Positions 12,360 to 27,911 of a stretch of 64,000 bases of DNA are shown in pieces. The stretch's first letter is position 1. Every line of letters starts with the position of its first letter. The notes below the pieces were generated by a model. The model saw only the letters and a program-made list of their open reading frames with translations. It had not been told where the DNA came from and ran no database searches. The translations under genes and the position numbers were made by a program. The DNA is taken from positions 6,246,322-6,310,321 of the forward strand of contig NZ_CP036273.1 of NCBI RefSeq assembly GCF_007747215.1, read 5' to 3'. Source of the DNA: Urbifossiella limnaea (GTDB lineage Bacteria; Planctomycetota; Planctomycetia; Gemmatales; Gemmataceae).

Positions 12360-15300
12360 TCACAGCAGCCGGTCGCGCTTCCGCAGCAGCCACTCGCCCA
12401 GCAGCGCCAGCAGCAGCAGGCCGTACACCCCCGCGTGGTTCCACAGCGGCAGCGGCGGCCGCGGCTCGTTCAGCGGCACCCGGTCCGGCTCCTTCAGGTC
12501 CGCGAAGAACGCCTCCGCCGTCGCCAGCGTGTAGAACTTGCCGTGCGACTTCGCCGCCGCCGCGATCAGGTCCGGGGCGTTCAGGTCCACCCGCTCCCGC
12601 TCCGTCGCCGGCGGCAGCACCCGCACGCTCGCCGACGGCGGCGCCGCACCCACGTCCGGGTCCGACAGCACGAACTGGTACACCCCCTCCGGCGTCCGCG
12701 TCAGCACGCCCTCGAAGCGGCGGCGGTCGGCCTTGTCGCGCGCCAGCACCAGCAGCTGCGTCTCCGCCTCGCCCGCCGACCCCGGCAGCGGCGACCGCGT
12801 CACCCGCACCTTCACCACCGTGCCCTCCGGCGGCGCCGGGGCGTCGTCGGGGAAGCCTACCTGTACCGTGATGCGGTCGCCGCGGCGGACCGGGCCGTCG
12901 GGCAGCAGCTTCAGTTCCGGCTTGCCGCGCCGCGCCCGCGCCAGCGCCCGCACCGACTGCAACCAGAAGGCGTTGAACTGCGGCTCGTCGGCGCGGAAGC
13001 GCCACCGCCACGTCTCGTCGAAGCCGAGGAACACCACACGCCCGGCGCCAGCGAACTGCTGCAGCACCAGCGGGTGCTTGCCGCCGGTGTTCCCCTCCGC
13101 GGCGCGGTCCGGGTGAACCGCCAGTACCTCGGCCGCGGGCTTGCGGGCGTACCCCTTCGCGGCCCAGAACAGCGGCGGCAGCCGCGCCCAAATCTGCTCC
13201 GCCTCCGCGTCCTTCTTGCCGAACCGGAACAGCGGGTGCCGCTTCCCCTCGGGCGTCAACTGCGGGCGGTAGCCCTCCGTCAGCGGGCGGTCCTCGGGCG
13301 TCGGCCGCGGCACGACTTCGAGCACCACCACCGGCAGCACGTCGGCCACCGGCGTGTCGGCGAACGCGGCCGGGGTGTGGTGCTCGCCGGCGGCCACGAG
13401 GAGGCCGCCGCCCTTCACCTTCACGAAGTCGGCCAGGTCTTGCATCGCCCGCGCCGACTGCGGCAGCAGTTTCGGGTCGAAGTCGCCGAGGATGACCACG
13501 TCGAACGTGAACAGCTCGTCGCGGGTCGGGAACGCCTCCAGGGCCACGGCGCTGCGGTCCGTCTCCGACCACCCCGGCGACGCCCCCACCAGCACCGTCT
13601 TGAACTCGATCGACTTGTTCCCCGCCACCTGGTCCGACTCGCGCTCCAGCAGCACCTTGGCGAAGCGGAAGTCGTACCGCGGCCGGCCCTCCACGAACAG
13701 CACGCGGGCGCGCTTGGCCTCGGTCACGAGCACGCGCCGCTCGACGCGGTTGTTCGTCAGGTCCGTCTCGCCCGGCGCCGGCGGCACGTCGAGGACAAGA
13801 ATCTTTTCGCCGACGGTGGTGGGGGTGTACGCCAGCTCCACCTTTTCGCCGGCCTCGGTGGGCCGCACCTCCTGCCGGCCGAGCTCGACGAGGCGGTCGC
13901 CGACCTTCTCGTAGAGCGTCACGCGGACGGGGTCCGGCGGCACGGCGCCGCGCGACGCCAGCTTGGCACCGATGTCGAGCGTGTCGCCGCGGGCCACCAC
14001 GTCGCCGAAGCGCAGGTCGGACAGGCCCAGGTCGGGGACGACCCACGGGTCACCGACGCCGACGAGGTACAGGGGCACGCCGGCGGCCTCGGCCGCGGCC
14101 GGCAGCGACGCGCCGGCGGTGGTCACGCCGTCGGTGAACATCACCACCGCGGCGGGCGGATTCCCCTGGAACTGTCGGGCGATCTGCTCGACGCCGTCGC
14201 CGAGCTGCGAGCCGTCGCCGGTGGGTTGCAGCGCGAGCAGCGCCTCGCGCAGGGGGGCAGCCTCCTCGGTCTCGGTGGCGCTGCCGACGACGCGGCCGCG
14301 GACGTCCACGGCGAACACGTTCACCTTGACGCGCTTCTCGGTGAGGAGGCGGTCGAGCCAGTCGCCGCCGGGGCGCGTGAGCAGTTGTTGGGCGAGCTTC
14401 AGGCGGTGCGTCCGCGGCAGGTTGGCGGCGCCGACCAACTCCTCGGCCTTGGCGCGGACGGCGGCGTCCTTCAGGTCGTCCACCGTGTCCATGCTCGCGG
14501 ACGTGTCGAGGATGATGACGACTTCGGGCCAGCCGACGCGCTTGAAGACGAGCTTCCACTGCGGCAGCACGGCCGTGAGTACCGTGAGAATGACGGCCCC
14601 GCGCAGCAGCGCCGCGGGGAGGACGCGAGCCAGGCCGCCGGCGGCGGCGCGCTCCCGGGCGTAAATGCCGAACGCGTAGCCGACGAACAGCACGGCGACG
14701 CCGACGACGGCCCAGCCGTCGTTGCGGCGGTCCGGCGTCGTCACCGACACGCGCTCGAACACCACGCGGTTGCTCTCGCCGGCCGGCGCCGGCGGCACCC
14801 CGGCGGCGCGGGCGATGGCGCCTTCCGCGGCGTCGCGGGCCGGGTCGGGGAGGAAGCCGAACAGGTCGCCGGTGAGTTCGACGCGCACCGCCAGCGCCAC
14901 GGCGGCGAGGCACACCAGCGTCAGCCCGCCGGCGAGCACGGTGCCGAACGTGCGCCAGACCGGGTGCCGGCTGAGCGGCCGCGCCACCGTGCCGCCGGCG
15001 CGGGCGGGGCCGGTCCACCACGCCAACGTCGTCTCCGCGGCCAGCAGCGTCAGCAGCGCCCACGCCGCCCACCGGGACAGGTCGGGGCCGTGCGGCCGCG
15101 GCTGCGTCACGGTGCCGGTGCCGCTGCCGTCGGTCGGCTGTGCCTCGGCCGGGTCGCTCACCACCTGAACGGGGCCGACCACCTTCCACTCGTCGGGCGT
15201 GAGCCGCTTCAGGTCGGACTCGGCGTCGCCGGCCGGGTTCACCGCGAACACGCGGTCGCGGCTGTCGCCGGGCGCCACCCGCTCGCGCGGGTCGGTCAGC

Positions 15301-17396
15301 CGCATCCGGTAGAAGCCGGCGAGGCGCGTGTCGGCGAACCGGGCCACGGCCGACTCGTCGCGGAGTGTCACCGGGGCGTCACCGCTGATCCCCTCGGGGC
15401 CGGTCACGCTCGCGGTCAGGCCGGCGGCCGCGGCGGGGAAGAATTCCTCGAGCGCGTCGCCGACGCGGGCCGTGTGCGGGTCCGGGTTTGCGGCGGCGAA
15501 GCGGAGCAGTTCGTGCTGGAATTCCAGGTAGCTCGGGAAGATGGGCCACTCGGTCCAGTCGCGGTTCAGGCTGCTGGCGTACACCACGACGCGGCCGCGG
15601 AAGCGCGGCCACTCGAGCACCGCGGGGTCGAGCTTCGCGTCCTTCGCGCCGGCCGCCGGGGCGAACGACAGGACGCGCCGGGCGGCGCCGTCGGCGAGCT
15701 TCACGTACCCGCGGAACGGCACGCCGACGAGGCCGGCGCGCGGGTTGTCCTCGCGGAACGCGGCCAGCGGCGAGCCCGGCCGGCGGTACTCGGCGTCGTC
15801 GGCGCTCAGGGTGAAGCCGGGGTTCTCGGCGGGGGCGCTCACGACCTCCCCGAGCGCCGACGGGAGGATGCCCTTGCCGTCGGCGTACAGGAGGCGGTTG
15901 TAGCTGTCCTTCGCCGCGGCCGCGTTCGGGCCGAGGCCGATCACCACGCCGCCGCCGCGCTTCAGGTGCGCTTCGAGCCGCGCCGCCATCGCCGGGGTGA
16001 CCGTCGGCACGTCGGCGAGGTAGACGCAGTCGGCGCCGGTGGTGTCGCCGACGGCCGCGTCCGCGAACTCGCCGTAGCTCAGCATCCAGCGCTCGGCGGG
16101 CGTCTCGGGCCAGCGACCGCCGGGGCGGTGCAGACGCGCCGGGGTGTCGCCCGGCCGCGCGCCCGGCGGCACGAGCGCCCGCGCCAGGTACTCGCCGGCC
16201 CGCTTCAGCGGGTCGGCCTCGCCCTTCTTCCCCTCCACGATCAGCGCGTGCAGCCCGTCGCGCGCCTCGACCACGACCGCCCGCGCGTCGTCGGCCGGCA
16301 GGTCGTCGCCGGTTTCCAGCTTCACCTGGATGAGATGCACGCCCGGCGTCAGGAAACCGGTTTTGCTCCCCTCCAGCGTGAACGACGCCGACACCCGCCC
16401 GCCGGCCGGGATCGCGGGCGTGGACTCGGCGGCGACCGCGGCCGGCGTCTCGACCCCCGCCGCCGACGGCCGGCCGAGGTGCAGCCCGAGCTTGGTCGGC
16501 GGGTGGTCGCGGCGGCCGAAGTTCTGCACGGTCGCGGTGACGACCATTGGCGAGCCCACGACCGCGACCGGGTCGGACAGTGCGAGATCGACGACGGCCA
16601 GGTTCTCGGGGTCGTCGCGGGCCACGTCCACGACGACCACGTCGGCGGCGCCGCGGCCGTTCTTGCCGCGGAGGATGGTGGTCCACGCCTCCGGCAGCGG
16701 CGCGTCGGCCCGCGGCAGCGCGGCGGCCCACCCGGTGCGCTGCGCGTCGGTGAAGATGGTGACCTGCCGGCGCGGGTAGCCGCGCGGGGAGCGGCTCAGG
16801 GCATCGACCACGTGCGACAGCACGACGGCGCCGTCGGCCGCGGCGTGGGTGGGGCGGAGCTTCCCGAGTTCGTCCAGCACCTTCAGCACGGCGTTCGACG
16901 GCCCCGGCACCACGACCGGCGACGGCGCGCCGACGACGATCACGCTGAACCCGTCGCCGGGGCTGCCGCCGCGGACCAGCTCCTCGGCCTGGGCCTTCGC
17001 CTTCTCGAACCGCGTCGGCCCGTCGGCGGCGCGGGCCGTCATGCTCATCGAGGCGTCGAGCACGATCACGTGGTGCGTCCGCGTGCCGGACGCGACGGCG
17101 ACCTGCTCGCCGGGCCGGACGCGCTGCCACCACGCCTCGGCCCAGTCGGTGGCGGCGGCGAGCGCGAACAGCGCGACGAGCAGCGCCAGCACACGGGCGG
17201 CGAGGAGGAGCCAGTGGTCGACGCGGCGGCGGTGGCGGCGCTCGGCCACCGCCAGGAAGCGGATCGCGGCCCAGGGGACGATCTGGTAGCGCTTGCGGAA
17301 CAGGAGGTGGACGAGGAACGGCACCGCGACGGCGGCGGCCGCGGCCCCGGCGGCGAGGCCGGGGGTGAACACGGCGAACACGGCGAACGGGGGCAT
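12360..17396 (-). CDS. Giant membrane protein with BatA-type head and two vWA domains
   Basis: A 1678-residue protein. The first 85 residues are a BatA-type head with two membrane helices (about 10-32 and 60-82) and a FLVHLLFRKRY core. The first vWA domain follows, with MIDAS motif DASMS at about 114-118. After about 600 residues of beta-rich sequence comes a second membrane cluster (about 780-935), then a second vWA with DTSAS at about 963. The rest includes a glutamine-amidotransferase-like segment (FVKVKGGGLLVAAGEHH) and ends in a membrane helix with a basic tail. In related bacteria these halves are usually separate genes, often beside MoxR ATPases; none is visible here. The frame is uninterrupted. 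Confidence 0.8.
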   Translation of the reverse strand: MPPFAVFAVFTPGLAAGAAAAAVAVPFLVHLLFRKRYQIVPWAAIRFLAVAERRHRRRVDHWLLLAARVLALLVALFALAAATDWAEAWWQRVRPGEQVAVASGTRTHHVIVLDASMSMTARAADGPTRFEKAKAQAEELVRGGSPGDGFSVIVVGAPSPVVVPGPSNAVLKVLDELGKLRPTHAAADGAVVLSHVVDALSRSPRGYPRRQVTIFTDAQRTGWAAALPRADAPLPEAWTTILRGKNGRGAADVVVVDVARDDPENLAVVDLALSDPVAVVGSPMVVTATVQNFGRRDHPPTKLGLHLGRPSAAGVETPAAVAAESTPAIPAGGRVSASFTLEGSKTGFLTPGVHLIQVKLETGDDLPADDARAVVVEARDGLHALIVEGKKGEADPLKRAGEYLARALVPPGARPGDTPARLHRPGGRWPETPAERWMLSYGEFADAAVGDTTGADCVYLADVPTVTPAMAARLEAHLKRGGGVVIGLGPNAAAAKDSYNRLLYADGKGILPSALGEVVSAPAENPGFTLSADDAEYRRPGSPLAAFREDNPRAGLVGVPFRGYVKLADGAARRVLSFAPAAGAKDAKLDPAVLEWPRFRGRVVVYASSLNRDWTEWPIFPSYLEFQHELLRFAAANPDPHTARVGDALEEFFPAAAAGLTASVTGPEGISGDAPVTLRDESAVARFADTRLAGFYRMRLTDPRERVAPGDSRDRVFAVNPAGDAESDLKRLTPDEWKVVGPVQVVSDPAEAQPTDGSGTGTVTQPRPHGPDLSRWAAWALLTLLAAETTLAWWTGPARAGGTVARPLSRHPVWRTFGTVLAGGLTLVCLAAVALAVRVELTGDLFGFLPDPARDAAEGAIARAAGVPPAPAGESNRVVFERVSVTTPDRRNDGWAVVGVAVLFVGYAFGIYARERAAAGGLARVLPAALLRGAVILTVLTAVLPQWKLVFKRVGWPEVVIILDTSASMDTVDDLKDAAVRAKAEELVGAANLPRTHRLKLAQQLLTRPGGDWLDRLLTEKRVKVNVFAVDVRGRVVGSATETEEAAPLREALLALQPTGDGSQLGDGVEQIARQFQGNPPAAVVMFTDGVTTAGASLPAAAEAAGVPLYLVGVGDPWVVPDLGLSDLRFGDVVARGDTLDIGAKLASRGAVPPDPVRVTLYEKVGDRLVELGRQEVRPTEAGEKVELAYTPTTVGEKILVLDVPPAPGETDLTNNRVERRVLVTEAKRARVLFVEGRPRYDFRFAKVLLERESDQVAGNKSIEFKTVLVGASPGWSETDRSAVALEAFPTRDELFTFDVVILGDFDPKLLPQSARAMQDLADFVKVKGGGLLVAAGEHHTPAAFADTPVADVLPVVVLEVVPRPTPEDRPLTEGYRPQLTPEGKRHPLFRFGKKDAEAEQIWARLPPLFWAAKGYARKPAAEVLAVHPDRAAEGNTGGKHPLVLQQFAGAGRVVFLGFDETWRWRFRADEPQFNAFWLQSVRALARARRGKPELKLLPDGPVRRGDRITVQVGFPDDAPAPPEGTVVKVRVTRSPLPGSAGEAETQLLVLARDKADRRRFEGVLTRTPEGVYQFVLSDPDVGAAPPSASVRVLPPATERERVDLNAPDLIAAAAKSHGKFYTLATAEAFFADLKEPDRVPLNEPRPPLPLWNHAGVYGLLLLALLGEWLLRKRDRLL

Positions 17397-21402: not shown

Positions 21403-23196
21403 TCAATCCCCGTTCCGCTCCGCTTCGCGGTCGAGGTGCAGGTGCGGCGTCGCGCCTTTGCCGCGGAGCTCGATCACGCGGTCGGCGCGGCCCTGCGTCA
21501 GGTACGCGGTCAGGTCCACGCCCATCTCGCGCAGCGCGCTCAGGTGCTGCCGCTGCCGCTCCTCGGCCTGCCGGCGCACCTCGATCTCCGTCTCCGCGTC
21601 GCGGCGGCGCTGGTCGCGCACGGCCGTGCGCTCCGCCTCCTTCTGCCGCAGCTCCGCCTCCTGCCGCTTGCGGCCCAGTTCGATCTCGGCTTCCACCTCG
21701 GCCGTCTGCTCGGTCCGCCGCCGCGTCGCGCGGTTCATCTGCGCGTTTAGCTTGAAGTCCTCCAGCGTCTGCGCCTGCTCCTCGGTCGCGCGTTCCAGTT
21801 GCAGCCGCGTCCGCGACTCGATCGCCTGGTCGTGCATCGCCTGGAGCCGGTCCGGGGCGGCGTAGCCCCGGTAGACCACCTTGTTGACGCGGTAGCCGTT
21901 CTGGGCCGCCCGCGCCGTGAGCTGCCGGTAGGCGTCGAGCTCGTTCAGCCCGCCGGTGTCGTGCTTGAACTGCTCGAACGTACGCCGGCCGCAAAACTCG
22001 ACCACGTCCGACGTGGCGGCGTTGATGAAGTCGCCGATCGGGTCGTGCGTCGCCTCCAACATGCGGTCGATGTCCATGAGCTCGAAGAAGAGCATGAGCT
22101 TGATGGTGAGGACGGCGTCGTCGGCGGTGCGGACCTCGGGCACGTCGTGGTACATCTGGTCGGGCATGAGCCACAGCTTCTGGAAGACGAGCCCCTTGGC
22201 GACCTTCCGCACGCCCTGCGAGCCGCCCTCGGAGCCGTGCCACGCGAACGTGTGCAGCCACTCGCCGGGCGCCGGCACGAACAGCGTCGGCCCGTACACG
22301 ATCCGCCGCGTGATCGCGTCCGACCCCGCGGCCCGGCTGTACACGATCACCGCCTCCTTGGCGGCGAGTTGGAGGGCGTCCTGGCGCTGGACGGTCTCGT
22401 GGACGCGCGGGTCGAACCACAGGTCGGCGGGGCCGGGGACGTGTTCCTGCCGGCCGTCGCGGAAGCGGACGATGAGGAACTCGCCGGGGTGCGCGACGAA
22501 GTGCCGCATCTTCTCGAACCGCTTCCGCCACGCCCACACGCGCCGCGGCCCGATCACGACCTCCATGCTCCCGTCCGCGCGGACCATGAGCGCCCGCTGC
22601 CCCTCCTCGACGGTGTAGTACCACATGGTGGCGGTCCCGTAGTCAGGGGTGGTGTCGAGTCCCGGCGGCATCGGCCGCTGGGGGATGTTGGCTTGAAGGT
22701 CGGCGACGTGAACGGAATCCCAACGGCCGGTGTTCGGGTCGATCGTGCCGCGCATCCCCTTGAGGAATTCGACGCGGGCGTGGGCGCGCTTCGCCTTCGC
22801 GGCGGTGCGCGTCACCGACTCCTCGGGCACGTCGAAGTCGATAGCCGTGTCGGTGAACTCGCAGAGCATCGAGTCCACGGACTCCGTTTCGCTCTGGCCG
22901 TAGTGCTCGTTGATGGCCTTGATGAGCGCGGCCCGCGGGTAGCCGACGAGGCGGATCTTCTTGTTCAGGATGAACGTCAGCTTGTCGGCGACGGACAGGT
23001 CGTTGGGGTCGGCGGCGGCCACGAACAGCGTCTCGCCGTCGAGCCGGACGGGGAGGACGAGATTCTCGCGCGCCACCGACTCGGGGACGAGTTCGAGGAC
23101 GTGCGGGGGCGGCGTCGGCAGCGGGATGACCGACGGCTCCGCGGCCTCGGCGGCGAGGTGGACGGCGCCCCGCTTGTGGATGATGTCGGGGATCAC
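21403..23196 (-). CDS. MshEN + vault-like repeats + SPFH + coiled-coil protein
   Basis: A 597-residue protein with an unusual order of parts. Residues about 33-100 resemble the N-terminal MshEN/GspE-N domain of type II secretion ATPases (LVPESVARENLVLPV, LFVAAADPNDL, INEHYG), but no ATPase follows. Residues about 196-320 hold three related segments, each a strand pair followed by GP and aromatic residues (VVIGPRRVWAW, HVPGPADLWFDP, IVYGPTLFVPAP). These resemble major vault protein repeats. Residues about 330-445 look like an SPFH/band-7 domain. About 450-550 form a Glu/Arg/Gln-rich coiled coil. There is no signal peptide or membrane helix, so the protein is probably cytoplasmic and oligomeric. 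Function unknown; domain calls are by eye. Confidence 0.7.
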   Translation of the reverse strand: MIPDIIHKRGAVHLAAEAAEPSVIPLPTPPPHVLELVPESVARENLVLPVRLDGETLFVAAADPNDLSVADKLTFILNKKIRLVGYPRAALIKAINEHYGQSETESVDSMLCEFTDTAIDFDVPEESVTRTAAKAKRAHARVEFLKGMRGTIDPNTGRWDSVHVADLQANIPQRPMPPGLDTTPDYGTATMWYYTVEEGQRALMVRADGSMEVVIGPRRVWAWRKRFEKMRHFVAHPGEFLIVRFRDGRQEHVPGPADLWFDPRVHETVQRQDALQLAAKEAVIVYSRAAGSDAITRRIVYGPTLFVPAPGEWLHTFAWHGSEGGSQGVRKVAKGLVFQKLWLMPDQMYHDVPEVRTADDAVLTIKLMLFFELMDIDRMLEATHDPIGDFINAATSDVVEFCGRRTFEQFKHDTGGLNELDAYRQLTARAAQNGYRVNKVVYRGYAAPDRLQAMHDQAIESRTRLQLERATEEQAQTLEDFKLNAQMNRATRRRTEQTAEVEAEIELGRKRQEAELRQKEAERTAVRDQRRRDAETEIEVRRQAEERQRQHLSALREMGVDLTAYLTQGRADRVIELRGKGATPHLHLDREAERNGD

Positions 23197-23307
23197 GGCG
23201 GTCTCCGCCGCCGCGACCGCGGCGGGTGGACACCTGGGCTGGGACTTGTCGGTGCTATTGTTTCCGCGCGGTCAAGAGGAAGGGTGGGGTCGGCAAGAGA
23301 CGACGGG

Positions 23308-23441
23308 TTAACCACAGAGTCACAGAGAGCACAGAGGGAAGACAAAAAACCGAGAGGAAGACACAAGATTGATTGAAATCAAACTCTGCCTCGTCTCGGT
23401 TTTCTGTCTTCCCTCTGTGCTCTCTGTGACTCTGTGGTTAA
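23308..23441. repeat. Tandem-arm hairpin element (CACAGAG type)
   Basis: The left arm at 23308-23352 and right arm at 23395-23441 are inverted copies of about 45 bp with two mismatches, separated by about 42 nt. The arms are built from repeated CACAGAG-like units. Base composition is clearly more AT-rich than the surroundings. The right arm runs into the TAA stop codon of trpB (23438-23440). Confidence 0.85.
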
Positions 23442-25318: not shown

Positions 25319-26212
25319 ATGCCGGAACTGCCCGAGGTGGAGACCGTGGTCCGCGACCTCCGCCCCCGCGCGGTCGGCCGCACGGTCACCGCCGTCCGCG
25401 TCGGGGCGAAGCAACTCCGCAAGGCGTGGAACGTGGCCTGGGCGGCGGACGTGGTCGGCCGGCGGGTCGCCGCGATCCGCCGCCGCGGCAAGTGGATCGT
25501 GGTCGAAATGGAGGGGCCGCGCATCGTCGTCCACCTCGGCATGACGGGTCAGTTCACCGCCGTCGCCGCGGCCGAACCCGAGCCCGACCACCTGCACCTC
25601 GTGTTCGCCCTGAACGACGGCACCGAGCTCCGCTTCCGCGACGTGCGCCGGTTCGGCTCCGTCACGCTGTTCGCCGACGACGCCGCGGTGGAAGCGTTCT
25701 TCGCCGCCGCCGGCCTCGGCCCCGAGCCGTTCGGCCTCGACCCGGCCGCGTTCCGCGAAGTCGTGCGTGCTTCCGCGCGGAACCTGAAGGCGATCCTGAT
25801 CGACCAGACGGTCGTGGCCGGCGTCGGCAACATCTACGCGGACGAGGCGTGCTGCCGCGCCGGCCTCCACCCCGCCCGCAAGGGCGACTCGCTGACGCCC
25901 GCCGAGTGCGACGCGCTGCGGGTCGCCGTCGAGGCCGTGCTGACGACCGCGATCGCCGCCCGCGGCAGCACGATCCGCGACTACGTCGGCGGCTCCGGCC
26001 TCGGCGGCGGCTTCCAGCTGGAGCATCGCGTCTACGGCCGCACCGGTGAGCCGTGCCTCACCTGTGGAGCCGCGATCGAGCGCGTCGTGTTGGCAGGCCG
26101 GTCGTCGCACTACTGCCCGAAGTGTCAGCCGAGGGACCGAGGGACCGAGGGACCGAGGGACCGAGGGGCAGGAACCAGGGAGCGCCCCCGCCCCCGGCTC
26201 AAGCCGAAATGA
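25319..26212 (+). CDS. mutM: Formamidopyrimidine-DNA glycosylase with repeat-encoded tail
   Basis: A 297-residue protein starting MPELPEVETVVRDL, so the catalytic Pro2 and Glu3 of Fpg are present. The helix-two-turn-helix region (VAGVGNIYADEACCRAGLHP) and a C-terminal zinc finger (CLTCG...YCPKC, about 244-266) complete the enzyme, which removes oxidised purines such as 8-oxoguanine and nicks the strand. Fpg normally ends a few residues after the finger. Here about 30 extra residues (PRDRGTEGPRDRG and a basic Pro/Arg end) follow, encoded by the left arm of a tandem-repeat hairpin. Confidence 0.96.
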   Translation: MPELPEVETVVRDLRPRAVGRTVTAVRVGAKQLRKAWNVAWAADVVGRRVAAIRRRGKWIVVEMEGPRIVVHLGMTGQFTAVAAAEPEPDHLHLVFALNDGTELRFRDVRRFGSVTLFADDAAVEAFFAAAGLGPEPFGLDPAAFREVVRASARNLKAILIDQTVVAGVGNIYADEACCRAGLHPARKGDSLTPAECDALRVAVEAVLTTAIAARGSTIRDYVGGSGLGGGFQLEHRVYGRTGEPCLTCGAAIERVVLAGRSSHYCPKCQPRDRGTEGPRDRGAGTRERPRPRLKPK

Positions 26213-26260
26213 TCGGACGGTCGGTCCCTGTGTCCCTGTGCCCCTGTGTCCCTCAGTCCC
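26130..26260. repeat. Tandem-arm hairpin element (GGGACCGA type)
   Basis: The left arm at 26130-26167 is a run of GGGACCGA units. The right arm at 26223-26260 is made of TCCCTGTG-type units and is largely its inverse complement, with a 55-nt spacer. The left arm is translated as the tail of mutM. The right arm lies just upstream of the sensor kinase start. Confidence 0.8.
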
Positions 26261-26273
26261 CCCAGTCGCCGTC

Positions 26274-27911
26274 ATGTCCTACCGCGCGTTCAAGAAGCTG
26301 CTCGGCGAGACGAGCCTGGAGCGGAAGTGCCGGTGGCTCCTCGGCGCCATGGTGCTCGTCCTCATGACCGGCAGCTTCTGGGTGTACGCCATCCAGACCG
26401 AGGGCCTCGCCCACGACCAGCTCCGCACCACCGGCCGCACCCTCGTCACCCCGGCGCTGGCCCGGCTGCACGTCCGCGCCGAGCAGCAGAACGCCATGGA
26501 CGAGTTCGCGAAGCAGAACGAGGCCCACTGGCCGGCCCAGCTGCGCGACTACAACGTCCGCCTCATCCGCGTGCCGCTCACGCCCAGCGACCCCGAGCAC
26601 CGGGCCGAGGCCGACGACATGCCGGCCGTGTCCAAGGTGAGCGAGCCCGACCGCACCGAGTGGGACCGCGACGCCGACGCCGAGAAGGCGTACTACTACT
26701 ACTCCGCGCTTCGCGCCGCCCCGTCCTGCGTCGGCTGCCACCGCGACCCGGAGAAGATGGGCCGCCCGGAACTGGCCCGCCCCGACCTGAAGCCGAACGA
26801 CCTCATCGGCATCGTCCGCATCCGCCTCACCACCCGCGAGATCGAGGAGGGCTTCCACACCAACCGGGCCGTCCTCATCTCGTTCGCCGTCGGCACGTCG
26901 CTCCTCATCATCGCCGGCAGCTACCTCATGATCCGGTACGTGATCGTGAAGCCGCTCAAGCACCTGAAGGAGGTGTCGGAGGCGATCGCCGGCGGCGAGC
27001 TGAACATCCGCAGCGAGATTCAGACCGGCGACGAGTTCGAGGACCTGTCGCACGCCTTCAACCGCATGATCCGCAACCTGACCAACACCCAGGACCGCAA
27101 CAAGAAGCTGATTTCGGACCTGGACCGCAAGGTGGACGAGCTGGCGCGGGTGAACATGGCCCTGTACGAGAACAACCGCCTGAAGGGCGACTTCCTCGCC
27201 ACCATGAGCCACGAGCTGCGCACGCCGCTGAACAGCATCATCGGGTTCAGCGAGGTGCTCCTCTCGGCGGACAACATGACCGAGAAGCAGCAGCGCTACG
27301 CCGGCAACATCATGACCGGCGGCAAGCAGCTGCTGGCGCTCATCAACGACGTGCTGGAGCTGGCGAAGCTCGAAGCCGGCAAGATGCGGCTGCGCCCGGA
27401 GCCGCTCGACGTCGCCGCGGCGTGCGAGCACGCGGCGGCGATGTTCCGCCAGCAGGCCGAGAAGAAGAACATCGACCTCAAGGTGCTCGTGGAGCCCGGC
27501 ACGCCGGCGGTCCGGCAGGACGCCGGGAAGCTGCACCAGGTGCTGTCGAACCTCCTGTCGAACGCGGTGAAGTTCACCCCCGAGGGCGGCCGCGTCACGC
27601 TCCGCGCCGCGTCCGACGGCGCGGAGCTGGTGCTGACCGTGGCCGACACCGGCGTCGGCATCGCGCCGGAGGAGCAGGAGCTGGTGTTCGAGAAGTTCCG
27701 GCAGACGGCGAACCCGCTGACGCGGGAGCAGGGCGGCACCGGGCTGGGGCTGTCGATCGTGCGCGAGCTGGCGAAGCTGCTCGGCGGCGACGTGGGCCTG
27801 CACAGCGAGCTCGGCCGCGGCAGCACGTTCACGGTGCGCGTCGCGGCCCGCCTCGCGGACGAGCCGCTCCTCGACTTCGAGCTCGGCGAGGAGCCGGGGC
27901 CGGCGGCGTAG
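26274..27911 (+). CDS. Membrane sensor histidine kinase with a haem-c motif in the sensor domain
   Basis: A 545-residue protein from the ATG at 26274. One membrane helix (about 22-42) is followed by a periplasmic domain of about 160 residues containing SCVGCH at about 154-159, a CxxCH haem site. A second helix (about 202-224) leads into a HAMP domain (PLKHLKEVSEAIAGGELN). The HisKA H-box MSHELRTPLNS places the phosphoacceptor at about His313. HATPase boxes follow: NLLSNAVKF, VADTGVGI, GGTGLGLSI. The sensor resembles DUF3365/Tll0287-type haem domains, suggesting redox or gas sensing. No response regulator gene lies beside it. Confidence 0.9.
   Translation: MSYRAFKKLLGETSLERKCRWLLGAMVLVLMTGSFWVYAIQTEGLAHDQLRTTGRTLVTPALARLHVRAEQQNAMDEFAKQNEAHWPAQLRDYNVRLIRVPLTPSDPEHRAEADDMPAVSKVSEPDRTEWDRDADAEKAYYYYSALRAAPSCVGCHRDPEKMGRPELARPDLKPNDLIGIVRIRLTTREIEEGFHTNRAVLISFAVGTSLLIIAGSYLMIRYVIVKPLKHLKEVSEAIAGGELNIRSEIQTGDEFEDLSHAFNRMIRNLTNTQDRNKKLISDLDRKVDELARVNMALYENNRLKGDFLATMSHELRTPLNSIIGFSEVLLSADNMTEKQQRYAGNIMTGGKQLLALINDVLELAKLEAGKMRLRPEPLDVAAACEHAAAMFRQQAEKKNIDLKVLVEPGTPAVRQDAGKLHQVLSNLLSNAVKFTPEGGRVTLRAASDGAELVLTVADTGVGIAPEEQELVFEKFRQTANPLTREQGGTGLGLSIVRELAKLLGGDVGLHSELGRGSTFTVRVAARLADEPLLDFELGEEPGPAA

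What the first reader, a model, noticed from the sequence alone, without database searches (positions are those of the whole stretch)
21403..23196. Protein joining an MshEN domain to vault-like repeats, an SPFH domain and a coiled coil
The order seen by eye is MshEN (about 33-100), three GP-centred beta repeats (about 196-320), SPFH-like (about 330-445), coiled coil (about 450-550). The last three parts follow the order of eukaryotic major vault protein, which assembles into large shells. The MshEN head, known from type II secretion/pilus ATPases and able to bind cyclic di-GMP in some members, has no ATPase partner here. A bacterial shell-forming protein with a possible nucleotide-sensing head would be new. 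The vault relationship is inference from repeat pattern and domain order.
Basis: partly seen in the sequence, partly recalled or inferred. Interest (0 to 1): 0.75.

Follow-up and report, generated by a model that had tools for sequence, protein, structure and literature searches.

The report
Bacterial mini-vault protein with pilus-ATPase head
This planctomycete gene encodes a shortened relative of the major vault protein, which builds giant hollow barrels in eukaryotic cells, with a domain borrowed from a pilus-assembly ATPase at its front; it may form open cages, but it lacks the parts needed to sense cyclic di-GMP or to close a full vault.

Summary
The gene is real and lies on the minus strand (21403-23196, 597 aa, GTG start). 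The domain order read by eye is right.

The vault relationship holds. The predicted model's best PDB matches are all major vault protein (MVP): Foldseek E 1.8e-14 for the whole protein; 244 of 266 core residues at 3.3 Å and 21% identity for the core alone. A profile comparison with genuine bacterial MVPs scores 54.5 against 16.0 ± 2.8 for shuffled controls. Only repeats equivalent to MVP R7-R9, the SPFH shoulder and a helix are present. R1-R6 and the waist that joins two half-vaults have no counterpart. An open cage or ring is therefore likelier than a closed vault; assembly is untested.

The head is only the C-terminal half of MshEN. The c-di-GMP-binding half is absent, so the nucleotide-sensing idea is not supported. 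The head was probably copied once from a planctomycete PilB, with its conserved tail (ESVDSMLxEFTDTAI). It is missing from 17 of 41 relatives, including all the Myxococcota ones. All share the conserved core, and nearly all an N-terminal GALQE-type peptide.

I found no published description. New variant of a known kind; function inferred, not shown.

The parts
21403..23196 (-). Whole gene, 597 aa, GTG start, stop at 21403-21405
   Evidence: relatives start at the same codon
23143..23196 (-). N-terminal peptide, residues 1-18 (family form Y.Y.....GALQEA; here IPDIIHKRGAVHLAAEA), predicted disordered
   Evidence: Gly10 in 39 of 41 relatives, with or without head; pLDDT under 50
22885..23112 (-). 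MshEN C-subdomain, residues 29-104; no c-di-GMP-binding N-subdomain
   Evidence: Pfam E 4.8e-19; MshE 57-145 Z 12.0; tree places 21 of 22 heads in one clade among planctomycete PilB
22834..22890 (-). PilB-derived linear motif ETESVDSMLCEFTDTAIDF, residues 103-121
   Evidence: same motif follows MshEN in planctomycete PilB incl. own genome (L045), not in Nannocystis PilB (L086)
22639..22833 (-). Variable linker, residues 122-186
   Evidence: low pLDDT, not conserved
22378..22638 (-). Two MVP-type beta repeats, residues 187-273; matched by MVP but not by canonical SPFH proteins
   Evidence: SPFH chains align only from model residue 88 on (= protein residue 274), MVP from residue 4-5 on; internal repeat
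22207..22377 (-). Third beta unit, residues 274-330 (equivalent to the last MVP repeat / beta part of the SPFH module)
21859..22206 (-). SPFH / vault shoulder domain, residues 331-446
   Evidence: members hit MVP_shoulder and Band_7 at E 0.009-0.05
21526..21852 (-). Long charged helix, residues 449-557 (position of MVP cap helix)
21406..21525 (-). Conserved C-terminal tail, residues 558-597 (GVDLTAYLTQGRADRVIELRG..PHLHLD)
   Evidence: many near-invariant columns in 41 relatives

Best explanation
It is a 'mini-vault' protein: a bacterial relative of MVP that keeps only the last part of the vault wall (repeats equivalent to R7-R9), the SPFH shoulder and a cap-type helix. Inferred mechanism: subunits pack side by side through repeats, shoulder and helix into a ring or open half-cage, closed at the helix end and open at the repeat end. 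From the open rim hang the flexible N-termini, each with a GALQE-type peptide and, in most planctomycetes, an MshEN C-subdomain plus motif taken from the type IV pilus/type II secretion ATPase PilB. Because that subdomain is a protein-docking module in such ATPases, and because its PilB-specific motif was kept, the head most likely docks the cage to a PilB partner, or to PilB-associated machinery, at the inner membrane. Shown: domain make-up, MVP-like fold (as a prediction), PilB origin of the head, absence of the c-di-GMP motifs. Inferred: oligomerisation (about 0.7 likely), open rather than closed cage (about 0.65), docking to pilus/secretion machinery (about 0.35).
For: Fold: top Foldseek hits are MVP, E 1.8e-14. 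Core-only model (pLDDT 89.6) aligns to MVP 320-651 over 244 residues at 3.3 A, 21% identity, Z 13.5, TM 0.69 by query. Sequence: hhalign to 9 bacterial MVPs, score 54.5, prob 92, against 100 column shuffles 16.0 +/- 2.8, max 24.9, reversed 17.0; those MVPs match PDB MVPs at E about 1e-51. Weak Pfam hits to Vault_3 (4 members), MVP_shoulder (6) and Band_7 (6). Head: 21 of 22 heads one clade, support 98/96, among planctomycete PilB; own PilB 53% identical over residues 33-141. Docking role: PDB holds a PilB N-domain-PilZ complex (7lkm/7lkn/7lko). SPFH proteins in general assemble into half cages (PMC13100048). No transmembrane segment: highest 19-residue hydropathy 1.26, inside the SPFH domain.
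Against: No assembly was modelled or measured. HMMER with the family profile finds no MVP in PDB even at E 10, and the window protein itself hits no Vault or SPFH Pfam model. The first hhalign with only 4 MVPs was weak (prob 44). Gene neighbours are not conserved beyond trpB in the closest relatives, so no partner is named. The gene is patchy and dispensable: 6 of 61 family genomes have it whole; one has decayed remnants.
Confidence: 0.55

Rival explanations
1. An ordinary bacterial SPFH (flotillin/stomatin-type) membrane scaffold with extra beta domains; the vault likeness comes only from the shared SPFH domain.
For: The SPFH domain alone gives the tightest superposition (stomatin 1.8 A over 109 residues, Z 14.5, tied with MVP Z 13.5); Band_7 is among the weak Pfam hits.
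Against: Canonical SPFH proteins align only from protein residue 274 on; residues 187-273 are matched only by MVP. Foldseek ranks MVP well above them (best E 1.8e-14 against 1.4e-7; 1.0e-11 against 6.3e-7). No transmembrane or strongly hydrophobic N-terminus. PMC13100048 calls the MVP repeats unique to the vault.
Confidence: 0.2
2. It forms a closed, small two-halved vault, the N-terminal GALQE-type peptide or the head replacing the R1 waist contact.
For: MVP-like core; an N-terminal peptide kept in nearly all relatives with or without head, as a joining element would be.
Against: R1-R6 absent; the peptide sits on a variable, largely disordered stretch (68-217 residues lie before the core), unlike the rigid MVP waist.
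Confidence: 0.15
3. A cyclic di-GMP-sensing shell.
For: MshEN Pfam match.
Against: Only the MshEN C-subdomain is present; both 24-residue binding motifs are missing in all 41 sequences; 17 relatives have no MshEN at all.
Confidence: 0.03
4. A shoulder-based adenine-nucleotide sensor: human vaults bind NAD+/ADP/ADP-ribose at the shoulder, and this family could do the same.
For: The core with the shoulder is the most conserved part of the family; nucleotide binding at the human shoulder is reported (PMC13174449).
Against: The residues of the human pocket could not be obtained (paper not held), so conservation was not tested.
Confidence: 0.07

Closest known systems
Major vault protein (MVP), eukaryotic and full-length bacterial forms
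   Same: Order of beta repeats, SPFH shoulder, long helix; core fold 3.3 A over 244 residues; profile-level sequence relationship
   Different: About 3 repeats in place of 9; no waist; helix of 109 residues, shorter than the stretch compared in bacterial MVPs (129-162); extra N-terminal peptide, linker and PilB-derived head; below all Pfam cut-offs
Canonical SPFH proteins (stomatin, prohibitin, flotillin, HflK/C, QmcA)
   Same: SPFH domain followed by a long helix
   Different: Two further MVP-type repeats; no membrane anchor seen; soluble N-terminal head
PilB/MshE/GspE MshEN domain
   Same: C-subdomain and the planctomycete PilB motif ESVDSMLxEFTDTAI; heads cluster among planctomycete PilB
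   Different: No c-di-GMP-binding N-subdomain and no ATPase

Membership tests
Major vault protein | MVP-type beta repeats before the SPFH domain | tested here: met
   Core model aligns from MVP residue 320 on; the first two repeats are not matched by SPFH proteins
Major vault protein | Nine repeats including the R1 waist | tested here: not met
   Only residues 187-330 carry repeats, about three units
Major vault protein | SPFH-type shoulder followed by long cap helix | tested here: met
Major vault protein | Passes Pfam Vault/MVP_shoulder cut-offs | tested here: not met
   Window protein no hit; relatives E 0.006-0.05, below cut-off; own genome has no MVP_shoulder match
Major vault protein | Assembles into 39-mer half-vaults / 78-mer barrel | not testable with these tools
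   No multimer prediction or experiment
Canonical SPFH membrane scaffold | SPFH domain | tested here: met
Canonical SPFH membrane scaffold | N-terminal membrane anchor (transmembrane or hydrophobic helix) | tested here: not met
   Highest hydropathy 1.26 at residue 362, inside the SPFH domain; lipid modification or amphipathic binding not tested
MshEN c-di-GMP receptor | Two RLGxx(LVI)(LVI)xxG... motifs in the N-subdomain | tested here: not met
   Absent in all 41 sequences; definition from PMC5013675
MshEN c-di-GMP receptor | MshEN C-subdomain fold | tested here: met

The most novel reading that the evidence does not exclude
Planctomycetes and Myxococcota build a previously undescribed hollow protein compartment, a mini-vault, and in planctomycetes it is tethered to the pilus/secretion machinery by a module copied from PilB.
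Probability: 0.2. Interest if true: 0.87.

Novelty: new variant of a known kind. Interest (0 to 1): 0.62.

Why it matters
Recent papers still describe vaults as exclusively eukaryotic or absent in prokaryotes (abstracts of PMC11855390 and PMC9778704), while a review notes putative bacterial homologues without firm conclusions (PMC7916137). Here a strongly conserved minimal vault module is shared by two bacterial phyla, and one genome (Nannocystis) also holds full-length MVPs. A minimal bacterial version in named isolates (Gemmata, Limnoglobus, Zavarzinella, Singulisphaera, Nannocystis) could make the long-standing question of vault origin and function testable with gene deletions.

Tried and rejected
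Conserved operon or partner: neighbours cluster only within close relatives (trpB in the Gemmata group). Defence system: no PADLOC or PHROGs match. Direct HMMER match to MVP in PDB: none. c-di-GMP motif: none. Heptad/hendecad periodicity in the helix: none, but bacterial MVP helices show none either, so not informative. Repeat 3 similarity to repeats 1 and 2 by sequence: not significant. N-terminal peptide as a shared targeting signal: in the Nannocystis genome only this protein carries it (a short-query test, weak). Viral relatives: only Band 7/SPFH proteins at E 1e-10 or weaker. Human shoulder nucleotide site mapping: paper not held. Promoter and terminator scan: nothing above chance. The plus-strand ORF 21799-23376 over the same stretch was taken as an antisense reading of GC-rich DNA and not tested further.

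Full report
WHAT IS THERE. The ORF is on the minus strand at 21403-23196 and codes for 597 residues from a GTG. Forty-three related loci were found in public genomes; 41 sequences, the window protein included, were aligned (A1). The core (residues about 187-597) is shared by planctomycetes and Myxococcota with high identity; over residues 187-452 identity to the window protein is 55-90% and mean column identity 70%. This leaves little doubt that it is a real, constrained protein family. No Pfam, NCBIfam, PHROGs or PADLOC family describes it beyond the MshEN stretch.

VAULT RELATIONSHIP. By sequence alone the signal is weak: the window protein hits no vault family and the family profile finds no MVP in PDB at E 10. 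But several relatives, each scanned against 24,736 Pfam families, give Band_7, MVP_shoulder and Vault_3 at E 0.006-0.05. AlphaFold gives a confident core. Foldseek's nine best PDB matches for the whole model are MVP chains, E 1.8e-14 to 6.4e-10; flotillin and stomatin follow at about 1e-7. For the core alone, human MVP aligns over 244 of 266 residues at 3.3 Å, 21% identity, MVP residues 320-651, Foldseek E 1.0e-11, TM 0.69 by query. By Z the stomatin SPFH domain (14.5 over 109 residues) and MVP (13.5 over 244) are close to tied; what separates them is coverage. Canonical SPFH chains start to align only at protein residue 274, so residues 187-273 are MVP-type repeats.

INDEPENDENT SEQUENCE TEST. 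Full-length bacterial MVPs were found in planctomycete genomes (7 of 392) and in Nannocystis. Their profile (A3) hits PDB MVPs at E about 1e-51. Profile-profile comparison of residues 187-452 with the helix-free part of these MVPs scores 54.5 (probability 92); 100 column-shuffled versions score 16.0 ± 2.8, maximum 24.9, and the reversed profile 17.0. An earlier comparison with only four MVPs was weak.

HOW MUCH OF A VAULT. Present: about three repeat units (equivalent to R7-R9), shoulder, helix of 109 residues. Absent: R1-R6, including the waist that pairs two half-vaults. Two of the three units are alike by sequence, the third only by structure. SPFH proteins in general form half cages, vaults alone form full cages through their N-terminal repeats (PMC13100048).

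THE HEAD. Residues 29-104 match MshEN but align to residues 57-145 of V. cholerae MshE. The c-di-GMP site is made by two motifs at residues 9-61 (PMC5013675); neither exists in any sequence of the family. The own genome has a PilB (L045) that is 53% identical over residues 33-141 and continues with the same ETESVDSML.EFTDTAI motif; Nannocystis PilB lacks it. In a tree of heads and PilB domains, 21 of 22 heads fall together (98/96; bootstrap not settled) beside planctomycete PilB; the long-branch protein L046 falls among them and one long-branch head (L022) falls outside, so both placements are unsure. One fusion is the simplest reading. By Pfam, 24 of 41 carry the head; 17 do not. The N-terminal GALQE-type peptide is present in both groups, so it is probably older than the head.

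MECHANISM. Shown: domain make-up, predicted fold, origin of the head, absence of the c-di-GMP motifs. Inferred: lateral assembly into an open cage, and docking of the rim to the partner of PilB. The docking idea rests on the MshEN C-subdomain being kept with its PilB-specific motif and on a solved PilB N-domain-PilZ complex (7lkm family, titles). Gene order names no partner.

DISTRIBUTION. In 294 planctomycete genomes nine had the full core, some without head or N-terminal extension. In the window's own family 6 of 61 genomes have it whole, and one shows two decayed, frameshifted remnants. It is single copy in the window's genome. The gene is thus accessory, easily lost, yet strongly conserved where present.

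NOVELTY. I found no paper describing it in the library searched; most subscription journals are not in that library. Bacterial MVP homologues as such have been mentioned (PMC7916137), so this is a new variant of a known kind: a truncated vault protein with a borrowed pilus-ATPase module.

Noticed in passing
L069-L077: Full-length MVP homologues in bacteria: planctomycete genomes (7 of 392 searched) and two in Nannocystis, with profile matches to PDB MVP at E about 1e-51. Nannocystis holds both MVPs and the mini-vault.
   Followed up: partly
L046 (own genome C1:2995923-2996201): A 330-aa protein with an MshEN C-subdomain but no ATPase domain; the subdomain seems to be a mobile module in this lineage.
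   Followed up: no
L090 (G438:C1:7828500-7842000): Two decayed remnants of the mini-vault gene, one with head and tail but no core, both with frameshifts or stops.
   Followed up: partly
L054-L057: Short members (open frames of 422-426 aa) among the planctomycete hits; L056, the one read, is core only, without head or N-terminal peptide.
   Followed up: partly
window 26046-27911 (+): Histidine kinase with a Tll0287-like sensor domain, HAMP, HisKA and HATPase.
   Followed up: no
window 12360-17396 (-): 1678-aa membrane protein with BatA start and von Willebrand A domains.
   Followed up: no
L023, L026: Contigs labelled Proteobacteria that carry head-less mini-vaults; may be Myxococcota or misbinned.
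   Followed up: no
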